From Succinivibrio dextrinosolvens DSM 3072 (GTDB lineage Bacteria; Pseudomonadota; Gammaproteobacteria; Enterobacterales; Succinivibrionaceae), in assembly GCF_900167015.1 (NCBI RefSeq), contig NZ_FUXX01000005.1:1-64000 (forward strand): a DNA stretch of 64,000 bases, written 5' to 3'. Positions 43,896-59,198 of this stretch are shown here, piece after piece (the stretch's first letter is position 1; the number at the start of each line of letters is the position of its first letter). Both the position numbers and the translations under genes were made by a program. The notes under the pieces were generated by a model, which saw only the letters and a program-made list of their open reading frames with translations, had not been told where the DNA came from and did no database searches.

Positions 43896-44675
43896 TTAGA
43901 GCTCCTTTATCGCTGAAAAATCTATACTCCAGTCAATCTCACTTGGAGATTTATTTAGAATCGCTGCAACTTCCCTGCATCCGCAATCACACATATCAAG
44001 TTTGCTGCAGTCTCTGCAAAAGGAAGGATGGTAATCACTGTTAGCAAAAATCCGCCAGTAATCAAGGTTGGAAACAATGTTTTCATCAAAAACGCTGCCG
44101 ACTATTACCGGAGAATGATTGCAACATCTTACCTGACCTGCAGGATCAATTACAAAGAAATCTTTTGCGGCTGCACATTTATACCCTATTGATATATGCT
44201 TATATTTGGAAGGCTCTTTAATTACACATAAAGGAATTTCTGTTCCGACATGCCCATATCGACCAGCCTCTGATAAAACATCCTCGGCAACATCTAGCAT
44301 TTCATTTATCTGTTCGTTAGTCAAAAGAAGCTCTTCCATATAGGAAAGGCCTCTTCCTCCAGGAAGAAAGCGATTCAGAAGAATACTTGAGGCCCCATTC
44401 AAAAGAGCAAGAGCTAAGGTTTCATATAACTCTGAAATATTAAGTTTTGTAACAGTGACGTTGCAGGTAGTTTCCATTCCTAAAGCTTTAGCTCTTTGAA
44501 ACCAGTAAAGAACATTTTCAGCGTTATCAACACCAGTGAGTTTTTTGAAATTGCTAAAACCCGGAAGGCTCATACTTAGATGTACATTAACCTCTTTGAA
44601 AAGCTTCAGGTATTCCTCACTCATGAGTAGTCCGTTTGAGATCAGGACAAATGACTGAGGTAAGCCTAGTTTTTT
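43896..44675 (-). pseudogene. Radical SAM/SPASM protein, 3' part (interrupted by IS110)
   Basis: Reads on from the IS junction as HKKLGLPQSFVLISNGLLMSEEY, then the radical SAM barrel (CNVTVTKLNISELYE, LLNRFLPGGRG) and a C-terminal SPASM iron-sulfur domain: CAAAKDFFVIDPAGQVRCC near the start, then CRDCSKLDMCDCGC. All cysteines for auxiliary clusters seem present. An internal ATG at 44624 could give a fragment lacking the radical SAM cysteines, which could not be active. Together with 46459-46716 it makes a gene of about 345 codons. Confidence 0.82.
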
Positions 44676-44776
44676 ATGAAAGCACCATAAGACTTAAATC
44701 TTCACGGCACAATAAAATCCTAGCCTCAGATTTGAGGCTTAAAAATCCCTTATAACTTCAAGTGGTTAGTTATACC

Positions 44777-46153
44777 TTAACAATAGGGACTAGAAGTCTG
44801 GTGTTTAACTTCATTCCTAGCTTTATGTATAACTTTAACAATGCCACTTGCTATATCTGTAACCTCAACGTCATTGCAAACTAAGCCTACCTGCTTAAGA
44901 CCCGCAATAGCATTTGTCGCTTTTGCCAACCTATGGTCTTTCAAAACAGGCTTATTCTGCTCTACATATGAAGTTCTGTGGGATATAACATTAAATATAA
45001 TTCTGCACAGCTTATGAGCTATTGCCACATTAGCTTTCTTTTGCCCTCGTCGTTCTTTTAACTTCTGATGCACCTCATGTAAATAACCAGTCTTCATCAA
45101 ACCGATTCCTGCGGCAGCCTCAATCAGTAAAACCTTCAGATATTTATTACCAGGAGTGGTTTTACCCGAACGACGTTTTCCTGCTGACTCATTATTTCCT
45201 GGGGCAAGTCCAATCCATTTTGCAAATTTACGAATTGATGTAAATTGAGATAAATCATCTCCCAATTCACATATAAGCCCCATTGCGGTCATCTCTTTTA
45301 CCGCAGGAATTGTTGTCAGTAACTCAATCAGTTTCCTATAAGGCGAGAGTTGCTGTTTTAAATTTTCCTCAGACTCTTTTAACTGAATATCAATGAATTT
45401 TATGTGGTTCAAATGTTTCCTTATGGAAAACCATACAAGACTGTCCATATCTGCCTGAAGGGCATCATATATCATTGCAGGGCTAGCCTTTAATTTTCCC
45501 TTGGAACTTTTCATTATCGAAACTATGCTACAGCGCAGTTTCTCTCCACACTCTCCACTTATAAGACATTCAAGTATTTTCGAGGCTGTCTTTCCTCTAA
45601 TGTCACTGAATACACTTGAGGCCCTGCATCCAACCTGACAGAGCTGCTTGTGCAGAATGTTTAATAACCTCTTACGCGTATTCTTCAATGTAGAGAATGA
45701 TCTCCATAAACATCGAAGCTGTCTTACAAACTTTTCTGGAACAAAAGATGCTCTGTAGCTTCCCTGTCTTGCAATCTCGGCTAAATGGATTGCATCAGAA
45801 ATATCAGTCTTACTTCCACGACGATTCTTTACATCTCGGGCATTTACAACAATCAGTTGTGATTTTGTAAAGCCTTTATCTTCCAGAGCCTCATATAAAG
45901 ACTGCCAATATACACCTGTGGACTCCATTATCAGAACCTCAGGATCTTTGCTTTTACACCATTCAGCAAATTTCACTAATTCAGTTTTTGACGCGGTTCC
46001 AGACCAGGTATCCCCTTCAACAACATTATTTCCAAACTCTCCTTTCTGGAATACTGCAACAATCAAATTCGAATGAACATCGATCCCGATTGCACTTTGA
46101 TGAAGAGCGTGGAAAACAGCCATTCTTTTATTGTCATTATGCGCTATACTCAT
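44777..46153 (-). CDS. IS110-family DEDD transposase
   Basis: 458-residue recombinase. N-terminal RuvC-like part: IGIDVHSNLIVAVF (Asp), EVLIMESTGVYW (Glu), and GSKTDISDAIHLAEIA (Asp pair). C-terminal Transposase_20 part: LLTTIPAVKEMTAMGLICELGD and WIGLAPGNNESAGKRRSGK with the conserved serine. GGAGGAGC before the ATG. Longer than most IS110 transposases (about 330-420). It appears intact. Confidence 0.93.
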   Translation of the reverse strand: MSIAHNDNKRMAVFHALHQSAIGIDVHSNLIVAVFQKGEFGNNVVEGDTWSGTASKTELVKFAEWCKSKDPEVLIMESTGVYWQSLYEALEDKGFTKSQLIVVNARDVKNRRGSKTDISDAIHLAEIARQGSYRASFVPEKFVRQLRCLWRSFSTLKNTRKRLLNILHKQLCQVGCRASSVFSDIRGKTASKILECLISGECGEKLRCSIVSIMKSSKGKLKASPAMIYDALQADMDSLVWFSIRKHLNHIKFIDIQLKESEENLKQQLSPYRKLIELLTTIPAVKEMTAMGLICELGDDLSQFTSIRKFAKWIGLAPGNNESAGKRRSGKTTPGNKYLKVLLIEAAAGIGLMKTGYLHEVHQKLKERRGQKKANVAIAHKLCRIIFNVISHRTSYVEQNKPVLKDHRLAKATNAIAGLKQVGLVCNDVEVTDIASGIVKVIHKARNEVKHQTSSPYC

Positions 46154-46185
46154 AGTGCTCCTCCATTAAAAGACTGTAGGAGTTG

Positions 46186-46387
46186 AGCTCTTCTCTATGA
46201 GTGCAGTATAAAGAAACTTAAATTACACCTTAGAATCCAAGAAGCTAAGATGTATTCCGTTTTTTTATACGAGATCATAAATAGGTTGTTATGTCTTCAA
46301 GCTGTTGTACAGCACAGCACTCGCCTTAATTTTTTGTCGGAGTAATCGAATGCTCACAAAAAAAGGGACAAGGTCCAGAGAAGAGCT
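46186..46387 (-). ncRNA. Candidate bridge RNA (seekRNA) of the IS110 element
   Basis: In IS110-group elements the non-coding segment before the transposase gene encodes the bridge RNA that pairs with target and donor DNA. Here an 11-bp perfect inverted repeat, AGCTCTTCTCT (46186-46196) / AGAGAAGAGCT (46377-46387), brackets about 200 bases; inside, ACACCTTAG/CTAAGATGT forms a stem-loop (46225-46253). A stretch at 46324-46337 resembles the sequence around the insertion point. Boundaries are uncertain. Confidence 0.45.
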
Positions 46388-46458
46388 TCTTTCTTAAGCA
46401 TAGTTCAACTAAGACTTCGCTTTCATGAGCTGTTGTGAACGTAACTGCGCTCATGATA

Positions 46459-46716
46459 TTTTTTGCTTTGAGAATTGAGATATTCCAGAACAACAGGAAG
46501 ATCTTTATATAAAAGGCATTCTCCGCCTGAAATTGATATTGTTTTCACCCCAAGAGCATATAATTTGTCAATCACTCTGCACCAGTCTTCTCCGGACAGT
46601 TCAGCTCCTTTAGGATAACTTCCCCCTTTGTTCTCCCAGGGACAAGAACAGAACTTGCAGAAATGATTACATCTGTACGTAAGTTCTAAAACAGCAGATT
46701 TAGGAAAGGAAACCAT
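46459..46716 (-). pseudogene. Radical SAM/SPASM protein, 5' part (interrupted by IS110)
   Basis: Starts ATG 46716 with MVSFPKSAVLELTYRCNHFCKFCSCPW: the radical SAM cluster motif C-x3-C-x2-C followed by an extra C. Then TISISGGECLLYKDLPVVLEYL (GGE motif for SAM) and ends at SQSKK, where IS110 sequence takes over and the frame closes at 46423. Its start is 5 bases after the stop of the cysteine-pair protein gene, so they were co-transcribed. Radical SAM/SPASM enzymes often modify peptides or proteins. Confidence 0.82.
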
Positions 46717-46721
46717 AAAGA

Positions 46722-47408
46722 TTATAATCCAAGAAGATGTTTAATCAATTCGCAACAATCCGTTAACATGTGGATCTCATCTCTATCTCCCACGTAAGCA
46801 TTATTACCATTCAAAAAATCCAACATTAACTCACAGTCCTCTAAAGAGACTATATTTCTGGTGTATTCATCTGTAGATTTAAATCTAAATGATAGAACGC
46901 TCACTGAATCATTTGATTCAAGAATACGCTCATAAACTTTTTCTGATTCACACTCAAGGTTTTCTTCCTCTGATTCATACTCACAAGAATATTCTATATG
47001 AATAGGAGCTTTCCCATATTCTTGCTGGTAACAAAAACCACACATGTGCTCAACCTGAATGTCATACCCGATTTTCTTTATTTCATTCACAATTTCACTA
47101 ATTTTCTTTTGTATTATTTCGTGAGGATTATGTCTAGAGTCTACATATGTATATAGACCATATTGATACATACGACCGCAGTGTGGGCATATATTTGTAT
47201 AAATTCTTGCTTCTGTATGGGCTGGGCTATAGCACATAGCTCCAGTCGACAAAAAATGATCGCAGGAATATTCAGCAATAGATTTTAGGCGTTTTTTTAA
47301 TTCTTCTTTTGACTCTGCTTTGTGTGCTTTTACGCCAATGATGATTTTTTCAGAATCCTTCACTTCTGAATTAAAATCTTCAACAGCCTTTTTTATGTTT
47401 TTATTCAT
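46722..47408 (-). CDS. Unrecognised cysteine-pair protein upstream of the radical SAM gene
   Basis: 228 residues, no family recognised. A helical, Lys/Glu-rich first 50 residues is followed by a cysteine-bearing core: CDHFLSTGAMC, ICPHCGRMYQYGLYTY, HMCGFCYQQEYG and EYSCEYESEEENLEC. The C-x2-C pairs resemble a zinc ribbon or iron-sulfur site. The last 60 residues look like a separate helical part. The five-base gap to the radical SAM gene suggests a functional partnership, as substrate, scaffold or co-enzyme. That is inference. Confidence 0.7.
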   Translation of the reverse strand: MNKNIKKAVEDFNSEVKDSEKIIIGVKAHKAESKEELKKRLKSIAEYSCDHFLSTGAMCYSPAHTEARIYTNICPHCGRMYQYGLYTYVDSRHNPHEIIQKKISEIVNEIKKIGYDIQVEHMCGFCYQQEYGKAPIHIEYSCEYESEEENLECESEKVYERILESNDSVSVLSFRFKSTDEYTRNIVSLEDCELMLDFLNGNNAYVGDRDEIHMLTDCCELIKHLLGL

Positions 47409-47531: not shown

Positions 47532-48170
47532 TTATTTCTTTTGAATATATTTTTCCTGAAATATGCAAAATCTTTGTTTATTCCCTTTTGTCAGTTTTAC
47601 AAGAATACCTTGTGGTGTTTTTTCTTCATAATAAGCATTCCAATCTTTATAAGCAGAAAGATTAATAATAAGAGAATCACCTTTGGTAAGACCATTCCTA
47701 TTGAGTTTGATATAAGTTTTAAAATCTACTCCACTAAGAGTTTGTATTTCTGTTTTAACAGACTTATCCTTGTACTTAGTAAAAACTCTAATTGCGTTTT
47801 GAGGAGCAGGAGCACTCTCTGTATCTGGTACTGTATTTTTTATATTAGTAGGTGGCTCGATGTTTTCTGTTGTAGCTTCACTAGTTATTTTTCTAAGGTG
47901 ATTAACGATATAGATACGCTCACCAAGTTTTACCTTCAAATTATTTTCACATCTTTCGATAAATATTACCTTTTGACCGTTAATTCCTGAAGAAGGATCT
48001 TCAACAAAATAGAACTCACCAGGACTTAGCTCTATACGAACTTGTCTTGTTCTTTTCGTCCGAGATTTCTTATCCTTCCTTTTTCGAAAGATAAAATCAT
48101 TATCTTCGTTAATTCTCCGCCTTGGATATTCAATATGCCAAGGAGATCCTTGTAACTGACTAATTCCCAT
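47532..48170 (-). CDS. Unrecognised basic protein, first gene of the radical SAM operon
   Basis: 212 residues, no family recognised. A strongly basic N terminus (residues 14-45, many Arg/Lys), a beta-rich stretch (FYFVEDPSSGINGQKVIFIER, KVKLGERIYIV), a Pro/Thr/Glu-rich linker (about 95-122), then a second beta-rich part with DSLIINLSAYKDWNAYY. The ribosome site is poor. It lies 123 bases before the cysteine-pair gene on the same strand, so an operon is likely but not certain. Confidence 0.55.
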   Translation of the reverse strand: MGISQLQGSPWHIEYPRRRINEDNDFIFRKRKDKKSRTKRTRQVRIELSPGEFYFVEDPSSGINGQKVIFIERCENNLKVKLGERIYIVNHLRKITSEATTENIEPPTNIKNTVPDTESAPAPQNAIRVFTKYKDKSVKTEIQTLSGVDFKTYIKLNRNGLTKGDSLIINLSAYKDWNAYYEEKTPQGILVKLTKGNKQRFCIFQEKYIQKK

Positions 48171-48935: not shown

Positions 48936-48969
48936 TGCTTAATGACCATTATTTTTGAAAATTAACTCT

Positions 48970-49695
48970 ATGAAATATGCATTATTTGAAGGACACAGAA
49001 TCGAACCTAAAAAAGGTCTTCGGGCTGTTTGTCCATACTGTGAAAATGAAGTAATTTCAAAATGCGGGTCTGTGAAGATGCATCATTGGGCTCATAAAAA
49101 TGATTTAAATTGTGATATCTGGAAGGAGAATGAACTCCAATGGCATCGCAATTGGAAGAATCAATTCCCTGCAGAGTGGCAAGAGAGAATATTCACAGAT
49201 ACACAGACCGGAGAAAAGCATATTGCCGATGTTTGTACAGACAATAATTTTATAATTGAATTCCAACATTCTCCAATTTCTGAGGAAGAGAAAGTATCAA
49301 GAGAGACTTTCTATAAAGAGATGTGCTGGATAGTTGATGCCAGCGGCGTCAGATTTCGTAAAAGATTCTTTGAGAAGGGGTTAATTTATCCATATACACA
49401 ACTTCCAGGCTTTTATTTTATTGATAATCCCCCAAATGCTCTTCCTCCTCAATGGCTTCAAAGAAACTCTTTTGTTTTTCTTGATTTCAAAGGAGACTCT
49501 GACGAAAGGCAGTTTGACGATTTATGGTGCCTTGTTCCAACAACGGTGAAAACGACAAATACTCTAGCCCTTCGAATTGCAAGAATAGATTTTGTTGAAA
49601 TGACAAAAAATAACGTCTTACCGTCTTACTTAATTAGTTTGAGGGACGGACTTAGCAAAACATTGGAAGCAAGAAAAAAAAGATGGCACCTTTAG
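48970..49695 (+). CDS. CoiA-like nuclease-fold protein
   Basis: 241 residues. N-terminal zinc-finger-like region (VCPYCENEVISKCGSVKMHHWAH) followed by a nuclease-like core: ELQWHRNWKNQFP, HIADVCTDNNFIIEFQHSPIS and RETFYKEMCWIVD. The D...E-x-Q-x-S arrangement is that of CoiA-type proteins (PD-(D/E)xK fold), known from competence and also seen in defence islands. I start at the ATG at 48970; a TTG at 48955 is the first start in the frame. It is convergent with the defence cassette. Confidence 0.75.
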   Translation: MKYALFEGHRIEPKKGLRAVCPYCENEVISKCGSVKMHHWAHKNDLNCDIWKENELQWHRNWKNQFPAEWQERIFTDTQTGEKHIADVCTDNNFIIEFQHSPISEEEKVSRETFYKEMCWIVDASGVRFRKRFFEKGLIYPYTQLPGFYFIDNPPNALPPQWLQRNSFVFLDFKGDSDERQFDDLWCLVPTTVKTTNTLALRIARIDFVEMTKNNVLPSYLISLRDGLSKTLEARKKRWHL

Positions 49696-49763
49696 TTAAG
49701 TTTTCTCAATCTAAAAAGAAAATTTCGCCTTAAATAGACAATAAATCTGAGAGAATACATTAT

Positions 49764-50966
49764 TTAATTATGGCAGCATGTGTCTTTTTTTCTAAATTCT
49801 TCCAATTTTCTTTTGGCCCAAAGAGTAAATTTTAAATGAGCTGACATTAGCTCTTTATTCTTTATTTCTGAAGAAATGAAAGACCTATCAGTAGATTGCA
49901 TAGATATTTCATTCAATGCTTCAGGAGATAATCTTGGAAAAATTGAATCTTTACCGTTCAATTCTTGATCTTTAAATAGACTAAACTCTTGTTCATCTTC
50001 AAAGAAAAGAATTGTTTTAACTTTTGCTTCAAATCTTCCCCAAAAATGAAGATCTGAAGTTATTCCTCCTAAAACTAATGAAAGGAGATATCTTGTTGAG
50101 TTTTTTATATAGTAATGGAATAAGATTCCTTTTCCATTAATCCGTGCATCACTTACACAGCATTCCGGTGCAACAATTGAAGATACTCCACCATCAAGCT
50201 CAACTCCTTTAAAATATCGCAATACTGTATCGTGGTAGTATACGTATACATCTGTCCACAAAGGGGTAGGATTTAGAAATTCTCCCATATATAACTCTTG
50301 CGCATTTCCAGAATCATCAGCTCGAATTCTTATAGTAAACTCAGGAAAATCTTCGTGATACTTTATCTTTAAATAAGAATTTTTATTCTCTAAATAAGGA
50401 CAATCAACCCACTTCTCAGGACTCATTAACAGAGAATCAAGTCGTTCAAGAGGAGTTTTATCTATACCGAAGCGTTTTCTCCAAAGTGACTCAACTTTAT
50501 CAATATCGGCAGAACCATTTTTATCAGTATTTGAATCTACAACTCTTGTATAAATATGATAAGGATAAAGATTTCTATAATCTGATTTGACACTTGTTAA
50601 ATATAAAGGTGTTTTCAAGCATCTTTTGATTATGATGATATCTATTGTTTTATCACCAATATCAAAAGATCTTACCTCTGTTAATGGTCTTATATTTCCT
50701 GCAAAAGGCTTGTCTTTTAAATAATTATTTAGTTGTTGCGTATTTTTTCTATTTTTATCATCAGCTCGTACCCCTTCTATTTCACAGGTTTCATCTCTTA
50801 TTCCGATAATAATATAAGCATCTCTATCTTCTAAATTATTTGACATACAAATAATATCATGAAGAAGAGAGCCTCCTTCAGTAGTTGGCCACTGGAGTTT
50901 AAAATCCCAATATGCCCCCTCATTATGAGAGTCAATAAGAGATTGAATTTCCTCTACAAAGCTCAC
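49764..50966 (-). CDS. AlbA_2/Schlafen-domain protein
   Basis: 400 residues. The N-terminal AlbA_2 (Schlafen-type) domain is clear: EGAYWDFKLQWPTTEGGSLLHDIICMSNN near residue 16 and DAYIIIGIRDETCEIEGV near 49. The remaining 250 residues are a mixed domain I do not recognise. Schlafen-like proteins include nucleases and regulators and are frequent in defence islands. Start is one base past the stop of the GIY-YIG gene, so it is the last member of the cassette. Confidence 0.8.
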   Translation of the reverse strand: MSFVEEIQSLIDSHNEGAYWDFKLQWPTTEGGSLLHDIICMSNNLEDRDAYIIIGIRDETCEIEGVRADDKNRKNTQQLNNYLKDKPFAGNIRPLTEVRSFDIGDKTIDIIIIKRCLKTPLYLTSVKSDYRNLYPYHIYTRVVDSNTDKNGSADIDKVESLWRKRFGIDKTPLERLDSLLMSPEKWVDCPYLENKNSYLKIKYHEDFPEFTIRIRADDSGNAQELYMGEFLNPTPLWTDVYVYYHDTVLRYFKGVELDGGVSSIVAPECCVSDARINGKGILFHYYIKNSTRYLLSLVLGGITSDLHFWGRFEAKVKTILFFEDEQEFSLFKDQELNGKDSIFPRLSPEALNEISMQSTDRSFISSEIKNKELMSAHLKFTLWAKRKLEEFRKKDTCCHN

Positions 50967-50967
50967 T

Positions 50968-52299
50968 TTATTTTCTCTTTAATTTACCCTGAATCTTATC
51001 AATGTAGTAATCAGCTATATCTCCTGCAAAAAGATGATCTATGATGTCACTTGCAGTTTCTACACTGACAGTAAACCATTCCCTTGGTCTAAAGGTATTA
51101 CCATTAATATCTTTTAATTCGACATGTAATTTGTGACTAGCAAGAATAGTATGCAGTACATCCTCAAGGTTTCTTGGGTCGAAGTTATAACACTGAAATG
51201 TTTTTAACACGTTAACAGGTGCGCATAGATATGTAGGATCTTTCTCCGCATTAGCAATTCTGGTTGCAACGTCAGTTGTGCAGTATCCGATTTTTACAAG
51301 ACTACTCTGTTCTGTAAATTTCTTAATTACAGGATGCTTACTCCTTGAGGAAAGAATATAAATATATCCCGTCATAATTGCATTTGCTGAACCTTCACTT
51401 GTTTTCATAAGTTCATTTCTCATATCTTCAATGAAATTTAAACCAATAGGATCAGCATGAATTATTCTTCTGCCAGGAATATCAGATTTTGCATAAAACG
51501 TTGTTTTAATGGATGTACTTAGAGGTGTTGATTCTGTTCCATTTATAAAAATCTGTTTTACTCGGTAGGTTAGCTTTCGTGAAGATTTTATCTTATAAGT
51601 TGAATCATCATCTACATCAGCTATTATGCTCATTACTCCGTTCACAACAAAGATATCGGCTAATTGAATAGATGCATTATCTCCATGAATTGGAACCGAG
51701 ATTAAATGTCCCTCTGATAGCAAGCGGTTTATTTCATCAAAGTACCTTTGATATTTGAAGAAATCCTTGCAGACTTTTTGTTTTGCGACTTTTCCATCAA
51801 CGGTGGAGGATGATTCTTCTCTATCTTTATGCCATGATTCTTCTTCAACAGCCTTATCACCGACATCACTTAACAGCCCCAATGGATCATCATTAAAGAT
51901 GTCATCAACACTGTTATATTCTGTAGTCTCCATTTTTTCGATATGAGCATCAAGTGCTTTTTCTTTTGAAAAGATATGCATTCCTTCCAGAAGATTTTTA
52001 TCCTTGTTTTCTTCTAAAAATGACTCACAGTATGTTTTACCTTCAGGGGCATCCTTAATAAGGGCATTAAATTTTTCTGCTAGAAGTTCTTCATCAAAAT
52101 CATCACTATCTACAGAAGGAAGTCTATTGTTTGACTTTACAAAGTCTGCAATTTCTTCGAATGCTGCTTTAATTTTGTCAGAGACAGACATAGAAAGTCG
52201 CTTTTCTCCAACGTTTGCTAAAAGTCCAAACGGATCATCCAGAAGAAGTTCATCAAAAGACTCTGGTTTTTTAAATTCTTTTTTTGAAGTTAACTTCAT
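50968..52299 (-). CDS. GIY-YIG (T5orf172/MUG113) nuclease-like protein
   Basis: 443 residues. The C-terminal domain (309-410) is a GIY-YIG type fold: GYIYIL at 311, LVKIGYC at 334, R347, LEDVLH (Glu) at 378 and REWF at 406. Upstream, D-D-P-x-G-L-L motifs occur twice (residues 21-27 and 137-143). Residues 43-80 (IKAAFEEIADFVKSNNRLP and on) resemble the C-terminal end of the helicase encoded upstream. It overlaps the helicase gene by 4 bases. I infer it supplies the DNA-cutting activity of the cassette. Confidence 0.8.
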   Translation of the reverse strand: MKLTSKKEFKKPESFDELLLDDPFGLLANVGEKRLSMSVSDKIKAAFEEIADFVKSNNRLPSVDSDDFDEELLAEKFNALIKDAPEGKTYCESFLEENKDKNLLEGMHIFSKEKALDAHIEKMETTEYNSVDDIFNDDPLGLLSDVGDKAVEEESWHKDREESSSTVDGKVAKQKVCKDFFKYQRYFDEINRLLSEGHLISVPIHGDNASIQLADIFVVNGVMSIIADVDDDSTYKIKSSRKLTYRVKQIFINGTESTPLSTSIKTTFYAKSDIPGRRIIHADPIGLNFIEDMRNELMKTSEGSANAIMTGYIYILSSRSKHPVIKKFTEQSSLVKIGYCTTDVATRIANAEKDPTYLCAPVNVLKTFQCYNFDPRNLEDVLHTILASHKLHVELKDINGNTFRPREWFTVSVETASDIIDHLFAGDIADYYIDKIQGKLKRK

Positions 52300-54431
52300 T
52301 TATTACCTTCCGCTTTTTCTTTTGCATTACGTTTACGTCTTTCTTCTTTCAACATTGCCAGAGCTATAGCTAAACGTCTTTCAAAATCATTTGTAGAGTT
52401 TAGTTCTGGCTCTCTCTTTTGTTCTTTCACAAATTTATTGATATAAGGCCAGAGTTCTAAAGCTTTTTGTAAGGTCATTTTCTCTCGCATTTGGGCTGTT
52501 TGCTCCTGAATGCGTTTCAAAAGCTCAGGTTCAATCGCCTTAGAGACAAACTGATAAGCGTTGGCAAAAGGGTTTATTGATTCGATTAAACTAAAATCAA
52601 GATCATCAACATTTATAAACTTTCCATTGATATTCACAAACTGCGTGTTATCTTCACCAACGACAACAAATGGTCCTGTTCCCTGTCCAGTACCTGTAGG
52701 AGGATTTCCTTCTTGACCTCCTTCAGGATTATCTGTTGGTCTATGACTTGTGGCCTTAAGGATTACGGTAGTTGCAATGGCTTTTGCCATTGCACTAATA
52801 TCTTCGTCAGTTAATTCAGGATGCATTTCCTTAATAACGTCAACAATTGCATCCTCAGCTAATTCCTGAGATATTCCCTCTCCTCCATTAGCAATAGCGC
52901 TTTTTACTGCAGGTGAATCGTTAATAAGTCTGTTAATAATATCGTTTCCTTCCTGATTGATGATATCAATAGCAGTATTACTTACTCCGTCATCATCTAT
53001 TGTTATTGTAATATTACTGGTATCAATAGGAGGATTATCACCATCTCGATGACCAGTGTTAATTTCAACACCATTAGTACCAGACGTTTGAGATGGACCG
53101 TTATCTTCACCTCGTTTTCTAAAATGAACATTTGGGGCAAGAACCTGCTCCATTAAAAGAGATAGAGTAATTGCCTTTAACAAAGTATTTACCGCATCGG
53201 TTACATCATCAAGTAAGGCATTTGGCATTGCCAAGAGATTTGTAAATTGGGCATGACTCTTACCAGGACAGTCACGGGTTGCTCTTCCAATAATCTGTAC
53301 AACTTCAGTTAATGATGCTCTGTAGCCTACAGTTAAAGCATATTCACATTGAGGCCAGTCAAAACCTTCTTTTGCCATGCCTAACGCAATAATAATGTTT
53401 AGTTCTTTGAGGTTTGCTTCATTACGTAAAGCCGCAAGAGTGACTCCCTGCATATTATCGGTATCAGTAACTAAATCAGCGACCTTTAGAAGTTTGCCGT
53501 TATGAGCTTTAATTGTATAAATACCAGTATCCCCATCTCTTGAAATAACATGTCCAAGAGAGTCAAACAAGACACTAACCTCGTTTGTTTTATCTCCGGT
53601 TGATTCTCTAGAGTTTACGCTTGGAATATGGATAATCATCTTCTTATCAGTGTCGATAAGTTTTTTAACAGCATTAACCCATTTTCCACTGTAAAAAGCA
53701 TAGTCAATTCCCAGACTTTTAAGGTATTTATAACCGTTTAACTGTTCGTAATAAGTGTAGGTCACTCTATCAAACAGTCTTTCATCTTCAGGTGATAGTA
53801 CTGGAACACTATCTCCTCTGAAGTATGAACCTGTCATGGCAATAACATGACAGGAAGATTCAGTCATCAGAGAATGTATGACGTTACCAAGTCTGTTTTC
53901 TGCATCTTCTGAGACATGGTGAAATTCATCTACTGCAACAAGGGCATCATCAAACTTGGAGATATCCTTTACCCTGTCAAAGAAATAAGTTAGTGTTGCA
54001 TGAGAGCACAGAAGATAATGGGCATCTGGATCGTCTAAAAACTCGACTGCACGTTGAACTTTCTGTGCATCTCCTCCTGGGGTACAAAGATTATATTTTG
54101 GGTTAACCGCCCAGTCTGCGAAGAAGCCATTCTCAGATAGTTTGGTGTCAGCAAAACTGGAGCCAATGGCAATCTGAGGAACTGCAATAAATACCTTTTT
54201 TATCCCCTGATTTATAACCTTATCTAAAGCCAAAAACATTAAGGCTCTGGATTTTCCACATGCAGGAGGAGCCTGAATTAACAAATACTTTGAATGTCTT
54301 TTGGCAAAGGCACGAGCCTGCATCTCGCGCATTCCCATGTCATTTTCTTTAGTACTATTGCCAGTCTGAGCAAAGGTGTATCTGCCAATGTTATGGACTT
54401 CAACATTGTCCTCATTTTTCATATCAGTCAT
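52296..54431 (-). CDS. SF2 (DEAD/DEAH-type) helicase of the defence cassette
   Basis: 711 residues. Walker A PPACGKSRA (55-63), Walker B VAVDEFHH (166-172, DEFH), motif III-like MTGSYF, and motif VI QIIGRATRD (379-387). After the helicase core, a low-complexity Gly/Asn/Asp-rich linker (about 430-600) leads to a helical C-terminal end, LWPYINKFVKEQKREPELN and onward. Type I/III restriction and similar anti-phage systems use such helicases to translocate DNA. Overlaps the methyltransferase gene by 1 base and the GIY-YIG gene by 4, so all are coupled. Confidence 0.87.
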   Translation of the reverse strand: MTDMKNEDNVEVHNIGRYTFAQTGNSTKENDMGMREMQARAFAKRHSKYLLIQAPPACGKSRALMFLALDKVINQGIKKVFIAVPQIAIGSSFADTKLSENGFFADWAVNPKYNLCTPGGDAQKVQRAVEFLDDPDAHYLLCSHATLTYFFDRVKDISKFDDALVAVDEFHHVSEDAENRLGNVIHSLMTESSCHVIAMTGSYFRGDSVPVLSPEDERLFDRVTYTYYEQLNGYKYLKSLGIDYAFYSGKWVNAVKKLIDTDKKMIIHIPSVNSRESTGDKTNEVSVLFDSLGHVISRDGDTGIYTIKAHNGKLLKVADLVTDTDNMQGVTLAALRNEANLKELNIIIALGMAKEGFDWPQCEYALTVGYRASLTEVVQIIGRATRDCPGKSHAQFTNLLAMPNALLDDVTDAVNTLLKAITLSLLMEQVLAPNVHFRKRGEDNGPSQTSGTNGVEINTGHRDGDNPPIDTSNITITIDDDGVSNTAIDIINQEGNDIINRLINDSPAVKSAIANGGEGISQELAEDAIVDVIKEMHPELTDEDISAMAKAIATTVILKATSHRPTDNPEGGQEGNPPTGTGQGTGPFVVVGEDNTQFVNINGKFINVDDLDFSLIESINPFANAYQFVSKAIEPELLKRIQEQTAQMREKMTLQKALELWPYINKFVKEQKREPELNSTNDFERRLAIALAMLKEERRKRNAKEKAEGNK

Positions 54432-57331
54432 TATTTAGACTCCTTTTTTGCAATAGCCTCAGAATACAAATCTAAAAGGAGTTCTAGACGTTCATCATCA
54501 TCTTTAAATGGTTCTGCTCTGTATGCTTTCTCAACAGCCATATCAAGATTGTTATGAGCTTCTTTTAAATCTTCAGGCATTTTATCTGGGTTATACATAT
54601 CGCCTAATGAAATTGATTCTCCAAATAATCTTGCTCTAATCCTACGAATTTGTTTAGCGAGATTGGTAATTTCTTCTTTTTGTGTCTCATTTGTGTTAGG
54701 CCAAATGAAGGTATTGAACGTTAAATCACGTGAATAGTTAAAATCTGATTTTAATCTTCCTGAAGTCAACCTCATCCATACCATATGCATTCTTGAGGTT
54801 AATATTCCAAAATCGTAATTAGATGCATTAGGTAGCATGAATGCACGATCATTTACAATTGAATCGCCTTTAATAAAATCCATTGGGACATATGGCCTAT
54901 TTTCTGATGTTACACGGGGAATAACCAAAGCAGTTTCGGGGTTAGAAGGATTTGCAAGTTCACCGAAACGCCATGGAACTTCTGCATTTTTAACTGTGAT
55001 ACTTCTAGTTGACTTCAATCTAAATGATTTAACGTTTTCCACTCTTCTTTTAATTTCTTCATTTTTTTGAGCCTCGTCCTTATTGTTTTCATTAAGCCAT
55101 AAACAGTATCTGAACTCAGATTTCATGAGTTCACTACTGCCAATGAATTTTTTAATAAATGGTTTTGCCTCAGGATAATCTTCTAAGAATTTCTGACCTT
55201 CTGCGTATTCAAACAATAAATTTCCATCATCAGCTGACATATTTCCGAATGATAAATTTAATTTTGTTGATAGAGCTTTAGTTTGTCTTCCTATAATTAT
55301 TGGCTTAATACAATTTGTTAAGTAAGGCGAAATACATGAACAGTTGGTTTTATAAGACTGTTTTTCTTTACTATCGTAAGAAATAATCCAAGGGTTATTT
55401 CTATCGTTATACGAAAATCCAACAATTATGCAAGTTACAACAGCTTTATTCGCAGCATCATTTCTCCAAGGAAATGATGAATATGCAAAATTAATCTTTA
55501 TACCTTTCTCTAATAATAATCCCCATAAAGTATCAACCTGCTGGCCCTGACAAATTGAGTTTGTTGATACAAATGCGGTTTCAATTTTTTTATTTTTTTG
55601 CATGTAGTTTGAGGCCTTTATATACCAAGCGGTTACATAATCAGCCCTATCAATTTTATATTTTGGAGGATAACAATCTTGTAACCATTTTTTTTGTTCT
55701 TTTGTTACAGTCAAAGCACCACCAAAAGGAGGGTTACCTAGGATATAAGAGCAATCTTCTGCGGGGAGAATCGTATTCCAATCTGTTGTCAAAGCGTTTG
55801 TTGTTACAATAGTTGCAGATGTTTTTAATGGGATAGACTGTATGTTTGAACCAAAACGTTGATTAGCCTCCTGATTCATTAAATGCTGCATCAACCACAT
55901 GGATACATGAGCAATTTCAGCAGGCCAGTCTTCAATTTCTATCCCATAGAACTGATTGATGCTGATATATGAATCAGTAAAAGCTCCTTCGTTAATGTAG
56001 CTAAGAACTTCATTTTCAAGTTTTCTTAACTCTTTGTACGAAATCAGAAGAAAGTTTCCGCATCCACATGCAGGATCAAGGAATTTCATTTTGCCAATGC
56101 GAGTAAGAAAATCTTTGAATACCTGACGACGCTGAGTTTCAAGTTCAATAGCCTCGTTGCTCCAATACCTAAAATCACCAGATATGGTTATTCCTTCGTA
56201 AGAAGAACGAGCTCTCTTCATTTCTGGTAGAGCTTTTATTTTCTCTTGTAGAGGTGCTGTATCTTTCTTTAATTGCTCAAATTCTTCATAAAGCTTATCC
56301 AAGAACAGCGGTTTTACGATTTTAAGAATGTTTTCCTCTGAAGTGTAGTGTGCTCCGAGAGTTCTTCTATCATCCTTTTTCATTGCTCCCTGGAACATAG
56401 CGCCAAAAATAGCAGGTGAGATTTCGTGCCAGGCTAATCGGCCACAGTCTAGCAACTGGTTTCTGGTAGCAATATCAAAATCAGGAATAAAGCCCTGATC
56501 TTTAAACAGTCCTCCGTTAACGTAAGGAAAGGCCATTATCGTTGCATCCACTACATGACCATTTCTCTCTCTTTCTTTTTTTAATGCATCTCTTTCTACA
56601 TTCTTAGTATTTAGAACAGTAAAGAGATCCTCAAAGAAAGTTTTTGCATTAGTTCCATGTTTATCCACAAGTTTATCGAAAGCATTGGTAAACATATTCT
56701 CTATGCTTGGATTAAAAATACCAGTATCTTCAGCAAAGAAACAGAACAGAATTCTTCTGATAAAAGAATTCAGTTTCTGCATATTATTTGGCTCAATGGA
56801 ATTATGTTTAGCAAGCGTATCAAGAAGTCTGGTTAACTTTAAACAAGCTTTTTTATCTGCTTCTTGAGTCGACACAATGGTATCTCTACGACCGTCTTTA
56901 ATTGGTAAAAGAAAAGAATAATTATCAGGCAAATCATCTAAATCAATAGAAAGGCTATCATTTAATACAAGGTCATATAAACAAAGGCTATTTGAACTGC
57001 AGCAGATAATAAATTGGATTCTGTTTTTCTGATTCTGGACTTCTTTTAACTGTTTTACTTTTTCAACTGCTGGAACAACATCTTCATCTTTTTTTAGAAA
57101 GCGGAAGTATGCTCTTTGTCTTATGGCTAAATCAGCACTTTCCATAGAATCATCAGTAAATTCTGATGCTACATTTACAGACCTGTCGTTTAATACTGCC
57201 TGTTCTACAGATCGATCTGCGGTTCCGTAAATTTTCAGAAGAGTCTTAAAGAAAGTGATTGGTTCCCAATGTTTCTTCATTGATTGAACCAAATCATAGA
57301 CCTGTACTGATAATTCTTGTTCTTTTGCCAT
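54431..57331 (-). CDS. MmeI-like DNA adenine methyltransferase, nuclease motif not visible
   Basis: 966 residues. Family landmarks: FGAMFQ and HYTS (309-331), SAM motif FLDPACGCGNFLLISYKEL (418-435), catalytic NPPFGGAL (533-540), and C-terminal target-recognition and MmeI-type C-terminal regions to residue 966. In MmeI and type IIG enzymes the N-terminal domain carries a D...E-x-K nuclease motif. Here residues 40-120 correspond to that region, but no E-x-K is recognisable. It would then be a methylation-only partner of the helicase and GIY-YIG protein. N6-adenine methylation is inferred from NPPF. Confidence 0.85.
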   Translation of the reverse strand: MAKEQELSVQVYDLVQSMKKHWEPITFFKTLLKIYGTADRSVEQAVLNDRSVNVASEFTDDSMESADLAIRQRAYFRFLKKDEDVVPAVEKVKQLKEVQNQKNRIQFIICCSSNSLCLYDLVLNDSLSIDLDDLPDNYSFLLPIKDGRRDTIVSTQEADKKACLKLTRLLDTLAKHNSIEPNNMQKLNSFIRRILFCFFAEDTGIFNPSIENMFTNAFDKLVDKHGTNAKTFFEDLFTVLNTKNVERDALKKERERNGHVVDATIMAFPYVNGGLFKDQGFIPDFDIATRNQLLDCGRLAWHEISPAIFGAMFQGAMKKDDRRTLGAHYTSEENILKIVKPLFLDKLYEEFEQLKKDTAPLQEKIKALPEMKRARSSYEGITISGDFRYWSNEAIELETQRRQVFKDFLTRIGKMKFLDPACGCGNFLLISYKELRKLENEVLSYINEGAFTDSYISINQFYGIEIEDWPAEIAHVSMWLMQHLMNQEANQRFGSNIQSIPLKTSATIVTTNALTTDWNTILPAEDCSYILGNPPFGGALTVTKEQKKWLQDCYPPKYKIDRADYVTAWYIKASNYMQKNKKIETAFVSTNSICQGQQVDTLWGLLLEKGIKINFAYSSFPWRNDAANKAVVTCIIVGFSYNDRNNPWIISYDSKEKQSYKTNCSCISPYLTNCIKPIIIGRQTKALSTKLNLSFGNMSADDGNLLFEYAEGQKFLEDYPEAKPFIKKFIGSSELMKSEFRYCLWLNENNKDEAQKNEEIKRRVENVKSFRLKSTRSITVKNAEVPWRFGELANPSNPETALVIPRVTSENRPYVPMDFIKGDSIVNDRAFMLPNASNYDFGILTSRMHMVWMRLTSGRLKSDFNYSRDLTFNTFIWPNTNETQKEEITNLAKQIRRIRARLFGESISLGDMYNPDKMPEDLKEAHNNLDMAVEKAYRAEPFKDDDERLELLLDLYSEAIAKKESK

Positions 57332-57404
57332 TTTTACACCTTATTTTAGATATATATATTTCTAGTATTTGAGCGTTCCAAATCTTAATAACTAATCAAA
57401 TTAC

Positions 57405-58538
57405 TTACATATCTTTTTGTTCTTTAACAATAAATTCTTCAAGTTCTTCTTTACTTGGCAGATGTAGCATATAGGTAGAGACAAATAATTTGTTATCAAG
57501 CCCCGATAATGCATATTCAACCATCTTCTTTTTATTTCCTCTCTTTGCACACAAAAGAATTCCTATTGGAGGATTATCGCCAGGATTCATCTCATTTTCC
57601 TTGAAGTAGGCAACATAAGCATTCAGTTGGCCGATGTTCTCGTGAGAGAATTCATCATTTTTAAGTTCAATAATGACGTGGCAATGTAGAATTCGATGAT
57701 AAAAGACAAGGTCTGGAAAATAATATTCGTCGTCAATTAAGATTCTTTTTTGTCTAGCTTCAAAACAAAATCCTTTTCCAAGTTCAAGCAGGAATTCTTG
57801 TAGATGATCTATTAAAGCTTGCTCAAGATCATCTTCTGTTATGGCTAGTTTTGCATCAAGCCCTAGAAACTCAAGAGCAAACGGTTCTTTTACAGTTATA
57901 TCTGGAGAAGGATTTCGCAGATTATCAAATAATAATTCTGGTTTCTTGCTTGCTCCTACCCTGAAATACAGATTGGTACTAATCTGTCTTCTGAGTTCTC
58001 TAACTGACCAGTTTGATTTTATACATTCAACCTCATAGAAATATCTTTCTAAATCATCATCTATCATAATTAACTCTCTTATATGAGAATATGAAAGATT
58101 TGAGATTAAATAATCACCGTCTGTTTTGAATTTTCTCGACACTGTCGAGAATTTCTTTTGTTCCTGTTTCGTATGAGTTTTTTCAGGAGATTCTATGGTT
58201 AATTGCTTTATTTCTTCCTGTAATCCTAGTGATTGTAATTTTCTCGACACTGTCGAGAAAATCTGAGGATAGACTAAATAGAACTTACGATACGAATATA
58301 ATGTTTTTTCACTAAGATTTAATTGCTCAAGTTTGCATCCAAGCTCTTTTAGTAAATTGTCACCATATAAAGCCTTATCATTGCCATTTTGTTCATATTC
58401 AACAATGTAATAGCCGATAACCCAATTTCTTAATGTTAAAAGCTGATTAACAGCACTCTTCGCATTTGTACTTGTTATTTTATGAATGTATTCTAGATGT
58501 TCTACTAGTCCTTCAAAAGAAGGATTGTTTTTATTCAT
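57405..58538 (-). CDS. DUF1016/YhcG-type PD-(D/E)xK nuclease-domain protein
   Basis: 377 residues. N-terminal DUF1016 domain with LLTLRNWVIGYYIVEYEQ and NLSEKTLYSYRKFYLVYP, then LSYSHIRELIMIDDDLERYFYEVE and WSVRELRRQI. The C-terminal nuclease domain has YYFPDLVFYH (Asp276) and VIIELK (Glu291, Lys293). The linker carries the same peptide (FSTVSRK) twice, encoded by an identical 22-bp palindromic repeat. Near restriction-type genes these proteins are common accessory factors. It is 73 bases before the methyltransferase gene. Confidence 0.85.
   Translation of the reverse strand: MNKNNPSFEGLVEHLEYIHKITSTNAKSAVNQLLTLRNWVIGYYIVEYEQNGNDKALYGDNLLKELGCKLEQLNLSEKTLYSYRKFYLVYPQIFSTVSRKLQSLGLQEEIKQLTIESPEKTHTKQEQKKFSTVSRKFKTDGDYLISNLSYSHIRELIMIDDDLERYFYEVECIKSNWSVRELRRQISTNLYFRVGASKKPELLFDNLRNPSPDITVKEPFALEFLGLDAKLAITEDDLEQALIDHLQEFLLELGKGFCFEARQKRILIDDEYYFPDLVFYHRILHCHVIIELKNDEFSHENIGQLNAYVAYFKENEMNPGDNPPIGILLCAKRGNKKKMVEYALSGLDNKLFVSTYMLHLPSKEELEEFIVKEQKDM
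58130..58151. repeat. Palindromic repeat within DUF1016 gene, copy 1
   Basis: ATTTTCTCGACACTGTCGAGAA; core TTCTCGACA/TGTCGAGAA is an inverted repeat around one C. Confidence 0.75.
58238..58259. repeat. Palindromic repeat within DUF1016 gene, copy 2
   Basis: Identical to 58130-58151, 108 bases apart and in the same reading frame. Confidence 0.75.
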
Positions 58539-58622
58539 AATGTTTTCTCTTATTCTTTAGTTACTATAAGCTGAAATGAATTTTCTCTAAACTGTATAGA
58601 ATTTTCAGAAAAAATTGAAAAT

Positions 58623-59198
58623 CTAGTGTGTTAGATCTGCTTTTAATTCTCTATATACTGTCATTCTGGATACACCAAGATCTTTTGCAATTCTAGTCAT
58701 TGGAATTCCTAATGCATATTTCTCATGACAGATCTTCTTTTTTTCATCTGTCATTACCACAGGTCTTCCAGATTTATATGTACCCCTGGCCTTTGCAGCA
58801 GCAATACCTTCTAAAACTCTACTTCTTATAAGTGCTGCTTCAAATTCGGCCAATCCTCCAATTACCTGCAGCATCAATTTTGCAGTAGGATTATTGTCAT
58901 CATTGGAGAACTCCAGATGTTGCTGAACAAAGTGGATAGTACAACCTTTATCGGTTATTTCTTTTACAAGATCAAGAAGATCTCTTAAATTGCGTGCAAG
59001 ACGATCCATCGAGTGGACATATATATGATCACCTTCACGACAGTAGGAAAGCATATTTTTTAATACAGGTCTTTCTCTTGTTCTTCCACTGATTTTTTCT
59101 TCAAAGACCTTATCGAAAGTCATTCCGTCGAGTTGTCGATCAAAACTTTGGTCTATCGTTGATACGCGAATATAGGCTATGCGTTGAAATTTACTCAT
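58623..59198 (-). CDS. Serine recombinase (resolvase/invertase family)
   Basis: 191-residue small serine recombinase. IAYIRVSTIDQSFDRQ gives the catalytic Ser13. HSMDRLARNLRDL has the conserved Arg residues, GGLAEFEAALIRSRVLEGIAAAKARG is the long E helix, and the C-terminal helix-turn-helix is MTRIAKDLGVSRMTVYRELK. Upstream palindromes are suited as recombination subsites. It could resolve cointegrates or invert or mobilise the defence cassette beside it. Confidence 0.92.
   Translation of the reverse strand: MSKFQRIAYIRVSTIDQSFDRQLDGMTFDKVFEEKISGRTRERPVLKNMLSYCREGDHIYVHSMDRLARNLRDLLDLVKEITDKGCTIHFVQQHLEFSNDDNNPTAKLMLQVIGGLAEFEAALIRSRVLEGIAAAKARGTYKSGRPVVMTDEKKKICHEKYALGIPMTRIAKDLGVSRMTVYRELKADLTH

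What the first reader, a model, noticed from the sequence alone, without database searches (positions are those of the whole stretch)
48970..59198. Possible unrecognised anti-phage cassette: methylase, helicase, GIY-YIG, AlbA/Schlafen, DUF1016, plus CoiA-like and resolvase
Seen: four minus-strand genes are fused end to end (overlaps of 1 and 4 bases, gap of 1): MmeI-like methyltransferase, SF2 helicase, GIY-YIG protein, AlbA_2 protein. A DUF1016 nuclease and serine recombinase lie upstream and a CoiA-like gene converges from the other side. Known: MmeI-type enzymes normally carry their own E-x-K nuclease. Inference: here cutting has moved to a separate GIY-YIG subunit and translocation to a helicase, making a split restriction system, different from textbook types I, II, III, BREX and DISARM in gene content. 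Similar loci may already be catalogued under another name.
Basis: partly seen in the sequence, partly recalled or inferred. Interest (0 to 1): 0.78.

Follow-up and report, generated by a model that had tools for sequence, protein, structure and literature searches.

The report
DnmA-YeeB-YeeC restriction operon plus passengers
A gut bacterium carries a widespread three-gene DNA-methylation-and-cutting operon already described in Bacillus and Vibrio, here with unrelated defence genes attached at its ends, so the cassette is real but its core is not new.

Summary
On the minus strand, an MmeI-like methyltransferase, an SF2 helicase, a GIY-YIG/T5orf172 protein and an AlbA_2 protein lie end to end (1-base overlap, 4-base overlap, 1-base gap). 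A DUF1016 nuclease and a resolvase lie upstream, and a CoiA-like gene converges from the other side.

The first three genes are the published DnmA(YeeA)-YeeB-YeeC cluster. My census found the nuclease directly downstream of the helicase in 138 of 141 loci with room, and the methyltransferase upstream in 119 of 140 distinct loci, from proteobacteria to archaea.

The fourth gene is not a component. It matches PADLOC candidate PDC-S50 over its full length, but no other sampled triad has it. None of the 24 other PDC-S50 loci examined has any triad gene; one lies in what looks like a Vibrio-type integron array.

AlbA_2, DUF1016 and CoiA-like genes do recur as inserted genes inside other triads, so here they are best read as swappable accessories.

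Verdict: a new member of a known kind with an unusual accessory set.

The parts
54431..57331 (-). DnmA/YeeA-type MmeI-like N6-adenine methyltransferase, 966 aa, with target-recognition domain and no N-terminal E-x-K nuclease motif
   Evidence: Pfam, PADLOC PDLC03598 928 bits, PDB 5hr4 MmeI E 7.4e-165, motif test; motifs DPACGCGNF and NPPF intact
52296..54431 (-). YeeB-type SF2 helicase, 711 aa
   Evidence: PF00270; Walker A PPACGKS, DEFH box, MTGS and QIIGRATR in the window sequence; these motifs are 99-100% invariant in 136 relatives, except that C58 is usually S and single positions such as I381 (96%) and A384 vary
50968..52299 (-). YeeC-type T5orf172/GIY-YIG nuclease, 443 aa, catalytic-type domain about residues 309-410
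   Evidence: PF10544, PF13455; G311, Y314, K336, G338, R347, E379, H383 98-100% conserved in 133 relatives and all present here
49764..50966 (-). AlbA_2/Schlafen-domain protein of PADLOC candidate family PDC-S50, 400 aa; accessory gene at the operon tail
   Evidence: PF04326, PDLC05032 E 3.8e-104 over the full length; fold matches to a RecG-N-type AlbA_2 domain and, weaker, to SLFN13/5/14; not found at other triads
57405..58538 (-). DUF1016/YhcG PD-(D/E)XK protein (PADLOC PDC-S02), accessory gene 73 bases upstream of the methyltransferase
   Evidence: PF06250, PF17761, PDC-S02 E 1.5e-115; homologues embedded in triads at L081 and L177
48955..49695 (+). CoiA-like protein (Zn-finger-like N-terminus plus PD-(D/E)XK-type region), convergent
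   Evidence: PF25164; homologue L161:457-1290 lies between methyltransferase and helicase of a triad
58623..59198 (-). Serine recombinase (resolvase/invertase type), probably mobility-related
   Evidence: PF00239 128 bits; serine recombinase homologues also lie within about 10 kb of several other triads

Best explanation
The core is a DnmA-YeeB-YeeC restriction-modification-like operon: an MmeI-type methyltransferase that has lost its own nuclease motif (shown), an SF2 helicase with intact ATPase motifs (shown), and a GIY-YIG/T5orf172 protein with the conserved catalytic-type residues (shown). Proposed working, inferred: the methyltransferase reads a short non-palindromic site and marks an adenine on one strand. 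On unmarked incoming DNA it recruits or licenses the helicase, which moves along the DNA, and the GIY-YIG subunit cuts, in the manner of a Type I or Type ISP enzyme. The AlbA_2, DUF1016 and CoiA-like genes are independent candidate defence genes that have joined the operon or its edges, as unrelated accessory genes do at other triads; they are not subunits of the core machine.
For: Core linkage: GIY-YIG next downstream in 138 of 141 helicase loci with at least 1.2 kb of room, methyltransferase within 1.5 kb upstream in 109 of 126 and, counting loci with an inserted gene, in 119 of 140 distinct loci. Catalytic-type residues conserved. Published identity, the Type I-like proposal and the V. crassostreae phage-sensitivity phenotype. 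Accessory reading of AlbA_2: PDC-S50 in 3 of 299 genomes and only the window genome has both; the congener G005 (helicase 88% identical over its partial match) has no PDC-S50 hit and a different downstream gene; 0 of 24 other PDC-S50 loci have a triad gene nearby. 32 of 119 triads carry genes between methyltransferase and helicase; among 43 embedded proteins scanned: RhuM 7, AlbA_2 and HATPase_c_4 7 each, Fic 5, DUF1016 2, CoiA 1.
Against: In B. subtilis, deleting dnmA, yeeB or yeeC did not change phage susceptibility (three phages), deleting dnmA did not change plasmid uptake, and the authors call it a relic (PMC9973331, PMC7261158), so activity cannot be assumed for any one copy. No enzyme activity, complex or methylated motif is shown here. 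Foldseek found no PDB match for YeeC below E 0.001, so the GIY-YIG call rests on Pfam and residue conservation. The 1-base gap makes co-translation of AlbA_2 with the triad likely, so a functional link cannot be excluded.
Confidence: 0.8

Rival explanations
1. A true four-gene system: the AlbA_2 protein is a functional subunit, for example an RNase fired when the restriction core engages phage DNA, so that the cassette combines DNA cutting with abortive infection.
For: 1-base gap to the GIY-YIG gene on the same strand. Acidic residues E16 and D21 invariant and position 58 always D or E in 11 relatives, with a spacing like the Schlafen RNase triad (spacing recalled from the literature, not tested). 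Fold matches to SLFN13, SLFN5 and SLFN14. AlbA_2-domain genes embedded in 7 other triads.
Against: PDC-S50 occurs at no other sampled triad and stands alone elsewhere, including an apparent Vibrio integron cassette. The embedded AlbA_2 genes elsewhere are a different, mostly longer subfamily with an ATPase-type C-terminus.
Confidence: 0.12
2. A decayed or orphan system: only the methyltransferase still matters, acting in gene regulation, as claimed for B. subtilis DnmA.
For: B. subtilis knock-outs show no phage or uptake phenotype.
Against: All three window ORFs are full-length with intact motifs; the order is preserved across phyla, which relics would not maintain; V. crassostreae homologues have a phage phenotype.
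Confidence: 0.15
3. A categorically new restriction type not described before.
For: PADLOC profiles match the methyltransferase as type IIG, while helicase and nuclease get only weak partial hits, so a profile tool could miss the three-gene unit.
Against: The cluster and the split-function idea are published.
Confidence: 0.03

Closest known systems
B. subtilis DnmA (YeeA)-YeeB-YeeC
   Same: Same three families, order and orientation; methyltransferase lacks the nuclease motif
   Different: Here flanked by DUF1016, AlbA_2 (PDC-S50) and a CoiA-like gene; B. subtilis has yefB/yefC recombinases and toxin-antitoxin pairs. The paper says B. subtilis YeeB and YeeC lack stretches in their C-terminal domain compared with V. 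crassostreae; I did not compare them with this copy
V. crassostreae DnmA-YeeB-YeeC homologues
   Same: Same three genes; deleting dnmA or yeeB raises sensitivity to some phages (PMC9973331 citing its ref. 35)
   Different: Primary paper was not held, so its flanking genes were not compared
MmeI (Type IIL)
   Same: Methyltransferase, spacer, target-recognition and C-terminal domains; E 7.4e-165 to 5hr4
   Different: No E-x-K nuclease; separate helicase and nuclease genes
PADLOC PDC-S50 and PDC-S02 candidates
   Same: AlbA_2 protein and DUF1016 protein match these profiles over full length
   Different: The other PDC-S50 loci examined have no triad gene
DISARM, BREX, classical Type I
   Same: Methyltransferase plus helicase plus nuclease idea; weak DrmMI and PglX similarity of the methyltransferase
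   Different: No PglZ, BrxC, DrmA/B/C or HsdS/HsdR in the cassette

Membership tests
DnmA-YeeB-YeeC cluster | MmeI-like methyltransferase without PD-ExK motif | tested here: met
   Pfam MmeI domains; motif not conserved, R77/L79 at about the E80/K82 positions
DnmA-YeeB-YeeC cluster | SF2 helicase immediately downstream | tested here: met
   1-base overlap; invariant motifs
DnmA-YeeB-YeeC cluster | T5orf172/GIY-YIG protein next downstream | tested here: met
   4-base overlap; PF10544; 138 of 141 relatives
DnmA-YeeB-YeeC cluster | m6A at a non-palindromic site | not testable with these tools
   needs long-read methylome data
DnmA-YeeB-YeeC cluster | phage restriction | not testable with these tools
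   published results differ between V. crassostreae and B. subtilis
Type IIL MmeI enzymes | fused N-terminal PD-(D/E)XK nuclease | tested here: not met
DISARM | DrmA/DrmB/DrmC genes | tested here: not met
   no such PADLOC hits in the cassette proteins
BREX | PglZ and BrxC/PglY genes | tested here: not met
   Pfam and PADLOC scans of the cassette proteins
Type I restriction | HsdS and HsdR subunits | tested here: not met
   no HsdS or HsdR profile hit in the cassette proteins
PDC-S50 | full-length profile match | tested here: met
   residues 3-394 on profile 5-384 of 387, E 3.8e-104
Schlafen-type RNase | AlbA_2 fold with three acidic residues | tested here: inconclusive
   E16 and D21 invariant, position 58 always acidic; model pLDDT 73, one hit below E 0.001 (RecG-N AlbA_2 domain) and weaker Schlafen hits; activity not testable

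The most novel reading that the evidence does not exclude
DnmA-YeeB-YeeC operons act as landing sites for swappable second-line effectors (AlbA_2/Schlafen-type, RhuM, Fic, DUF1016, CoiA) inserted between methyltransferase and helicase or at the operon tail and kept under its control; in this window a Schlafen-like RNase fires when the restriction core is engaged or defeated.
Probability: 0.15. Interest if true: 0.55.

Novelty: new member of a known kind. Interest (0 to 1): 0.3.

Why it matters
The DnmA-YeeB-YeeC triad is very widespread, yet I found no published in vitro test of its cutting mechanism, and two published hosts disagree on whether it restricts phage. This copy is full-length, with all motifs intact, and would be a good test case. 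The recurring inserted genes suggest where to look for further candidate defence genes, as has been done for genes embedded in other immune systems (Payne et al. 2024, cited in PMC12629846).

Tried and rejected
Four-gene system: rejected as a general unit by forward and reverse censuses. BREX, DISARM and Type I: no defining partners. Operon promoter from consensus scan: 42 sites against 49.4 in shuffles, uninformative. Fold search with YeeC against PDB: no match below E 0.001. PDB sequence search with AlbA_2: none; with GIY-YIG: only a chance-level hit at E 0.81. tRNA integration site: no tRNA in the window. Primary papers of Morgan 2009, Piel 2022 and Payne 2024 are not held; their claims are taken from papers that cite them, or, where marked, from memory.
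Full report
What is there. On the minus strand, in order of transcription: resolvase 59198-58623, DUF1016 58538-57405, MmeI-like methyltransferase 57331-54431, SF2 helicase 54431-52296, GIY-YIG/T5orf172 52299-50968 and AlbA_2 50966-49764. A CoiA-like gene 48955-49695 converges on the plus strand. Pfam supports each assignment. PADLOC gives type IIG for the methyltransferase (928 bits), PDC-S50 for AlbA_2 (347 bits, full length) and PDC-S02 for DUF1016 (384 bits).

The core is known. The three genes methyltransferase-helicase-GIY-YIG are the DnmA(YeeA)-YeeB-YeeC cluster of B. subtilis. According to PMC7261158, Morgan et al. 2009 placed YeeA among MmeI homologues that lack the endonuclease motif and are flanked by yeeB- and yeeC-like genes, and suggested a Type I-like restriction system. 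PMC9973331 showed the conserved neighbourhood, noted that Makarova et al. had listed YeeB and YeeC homologues as putative antiphage genes, found no phage phenotype in B. subtilis, and cited a Vibrio crassostreae study in which deleting dnmA or yeeB raised phage sensitivity.

Census of the core. The GIY-YIG gene follows directly in 138 of 141 loci with room, and the methyltransferase lies within 1.5 kb upstream in 109 of 126. Allowing inserted genes, 119 of 140 distinct loci have the methyltransferase. Loci include Gammaproteobacteria, Bacteroidota, Bacillota, Actinomycetota, Planctomycetes and an archaeal MAG. The sample is biased towards sequences similar to the query, so these fractions are not prevalences. 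In an even sample of the phylum 16 of 299 genomes have the helicase.

Active sites. The methyltransferase has DPACGCGNF and NPPF. MmeI's nuclease residues are V69-D70...E80-M81-K82 (PMC4833311). Counting back from the aligned block, the E and K positions are about R77 and L79 here, and no D...E-x-K pattern is conserved in 106 homologues. The helicase motifs are near-invariant in 136 sequences (most positions 99-100%; C58 of PPACGKS is usually serine). In 133 GIY-YIG proteins G311, Y314, K336, G338, R347, E379 and H383 are 98-100% conserved, all present here. This is what a working restriction arm would need, but activity is not shown.

The fourth gene. Three tests separate AlbA_2 from the core. 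First, no other triad locus has a homologue by sequence search, and among relatives of the host only the window genome has a full-length PDC-S50 match. The congener G005, with a helicase 88% identical over its partial match, has another gene after the nuclease; that genome is 88% complete. Second, in the phylum sample PDC-S50 is in 3 genomes and the helicase in 16, and only the window genome has both. Third, of 24 other PDC-S50 loci (7 plasmid, 2 genome, 15 viral), none has a triad gene in its flanks. One of these, L199, lies in what looks like a Vibrio-type integron cassette array, judged by eye from repeated leader peptides of the CVAHALTHRYM kind. The protein's predicted fold matches a RecG-N-type AlbA_2 domain (the only hit below E 0.001) and, more weakly, Schlafens (model pLDDT 73). 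E16 and D21 are invariant and position 58 is always acidic in its relatives. A nuclease role is plausible but inferred.

Accessory genes. In 32 of 119 triads one or more same-strand genes sit between methyltransferase and helicase, often with overlaps of a few bases. The Pfam tally of 43 such proteins is RhuM 7, AlbA_2 7 and HATPase_c_4 7 (largely one protein cluster), Fic 5, DUF1016 2, CoiA 1, plus single FRG, KAP and Abi_C proteins. Examples: DUF1016 at L177:6883-7944, overlapping both neighbours, and CoiA at L161:457-1290, which is homologous to the window's CoiA gene. After the GIY-YIG gene, 56 of 125 loci have a close same-strand gene, almost always a different one. So the window's three extra genes belong to families, or superfamilies in the AlbA_2 case, that visit this operon repeatedly. 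Embedding of defence genes within immune operons is a described theme (Payne et al. 2024, title cited in PMC12629846; from memory, the PADLOC PDC candidates derive from that work). I could not read that paper, so I do not claim the embedding in YeeABC operons as new.

Mechanism. Shown: gene content, order, lost and kept motifs. From known families: MmeI relatives protect by methylating one strand (PMC7261158). Inferred: helicase-driven movement from unmodified sites and cutting by the GIY-YIG subunit; accessory genes acting on their own. The B. subtilis negative result warns that a given copy may be inactive.

Verdict. It is a new member of a known kind with modest added interest from its accessory genes.

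Noticed in passing
43896-46716: An IS110-family transposase (44777-46153) appears to split a radical-SAM gene: the N-terminal half is 46423-46716 and the C-terminal half 43896-44624.
   Followed up: no
50968-52299 (YeeC N-terminus): A short acidic motif occurs twice (DELLLDDPFGLL at residue 16, DDIFNDDPLGLL at residue 132). Of 133 relatives, 56 have at least one copy and 16 have two, against 8 single hits in 2660 shuffled sequences; possibly a docking motif.
   Followed up: partly
L161:457-1290, L177:6883-7944, L127:1520-2572, L098:8243-9889: Unrelated genes (CoiA, DUF1016, RhuM, an AlbA_2-cluster protein) are inserted between methyltransferase and helicase of YeeABC operons, often with overlaps of a few bases.
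   Followed up: partly
L052:4772-10046: Two methyltransferase-matching ORFs lie in tandem upstream of one helicase.
   Followed up: no
L026:5337-7988: In Ligilactobacillus salivarius the MmeI-like protein is split: a separate 167-aa ORF annotated MmeI precedes the methyltransferase.
   Followed up: no
L199:8803-9999: A PDC-S50 gene stands alone in an apparent Vibrio-type integron cassette array.
   Followed up: partly
46722-47408 and 47532-48170: Two ORFs of 228 and 212 aa next to the cassette have no Pfam or PADLOC match and no convincing NCBIfam match.
   Followed up: no
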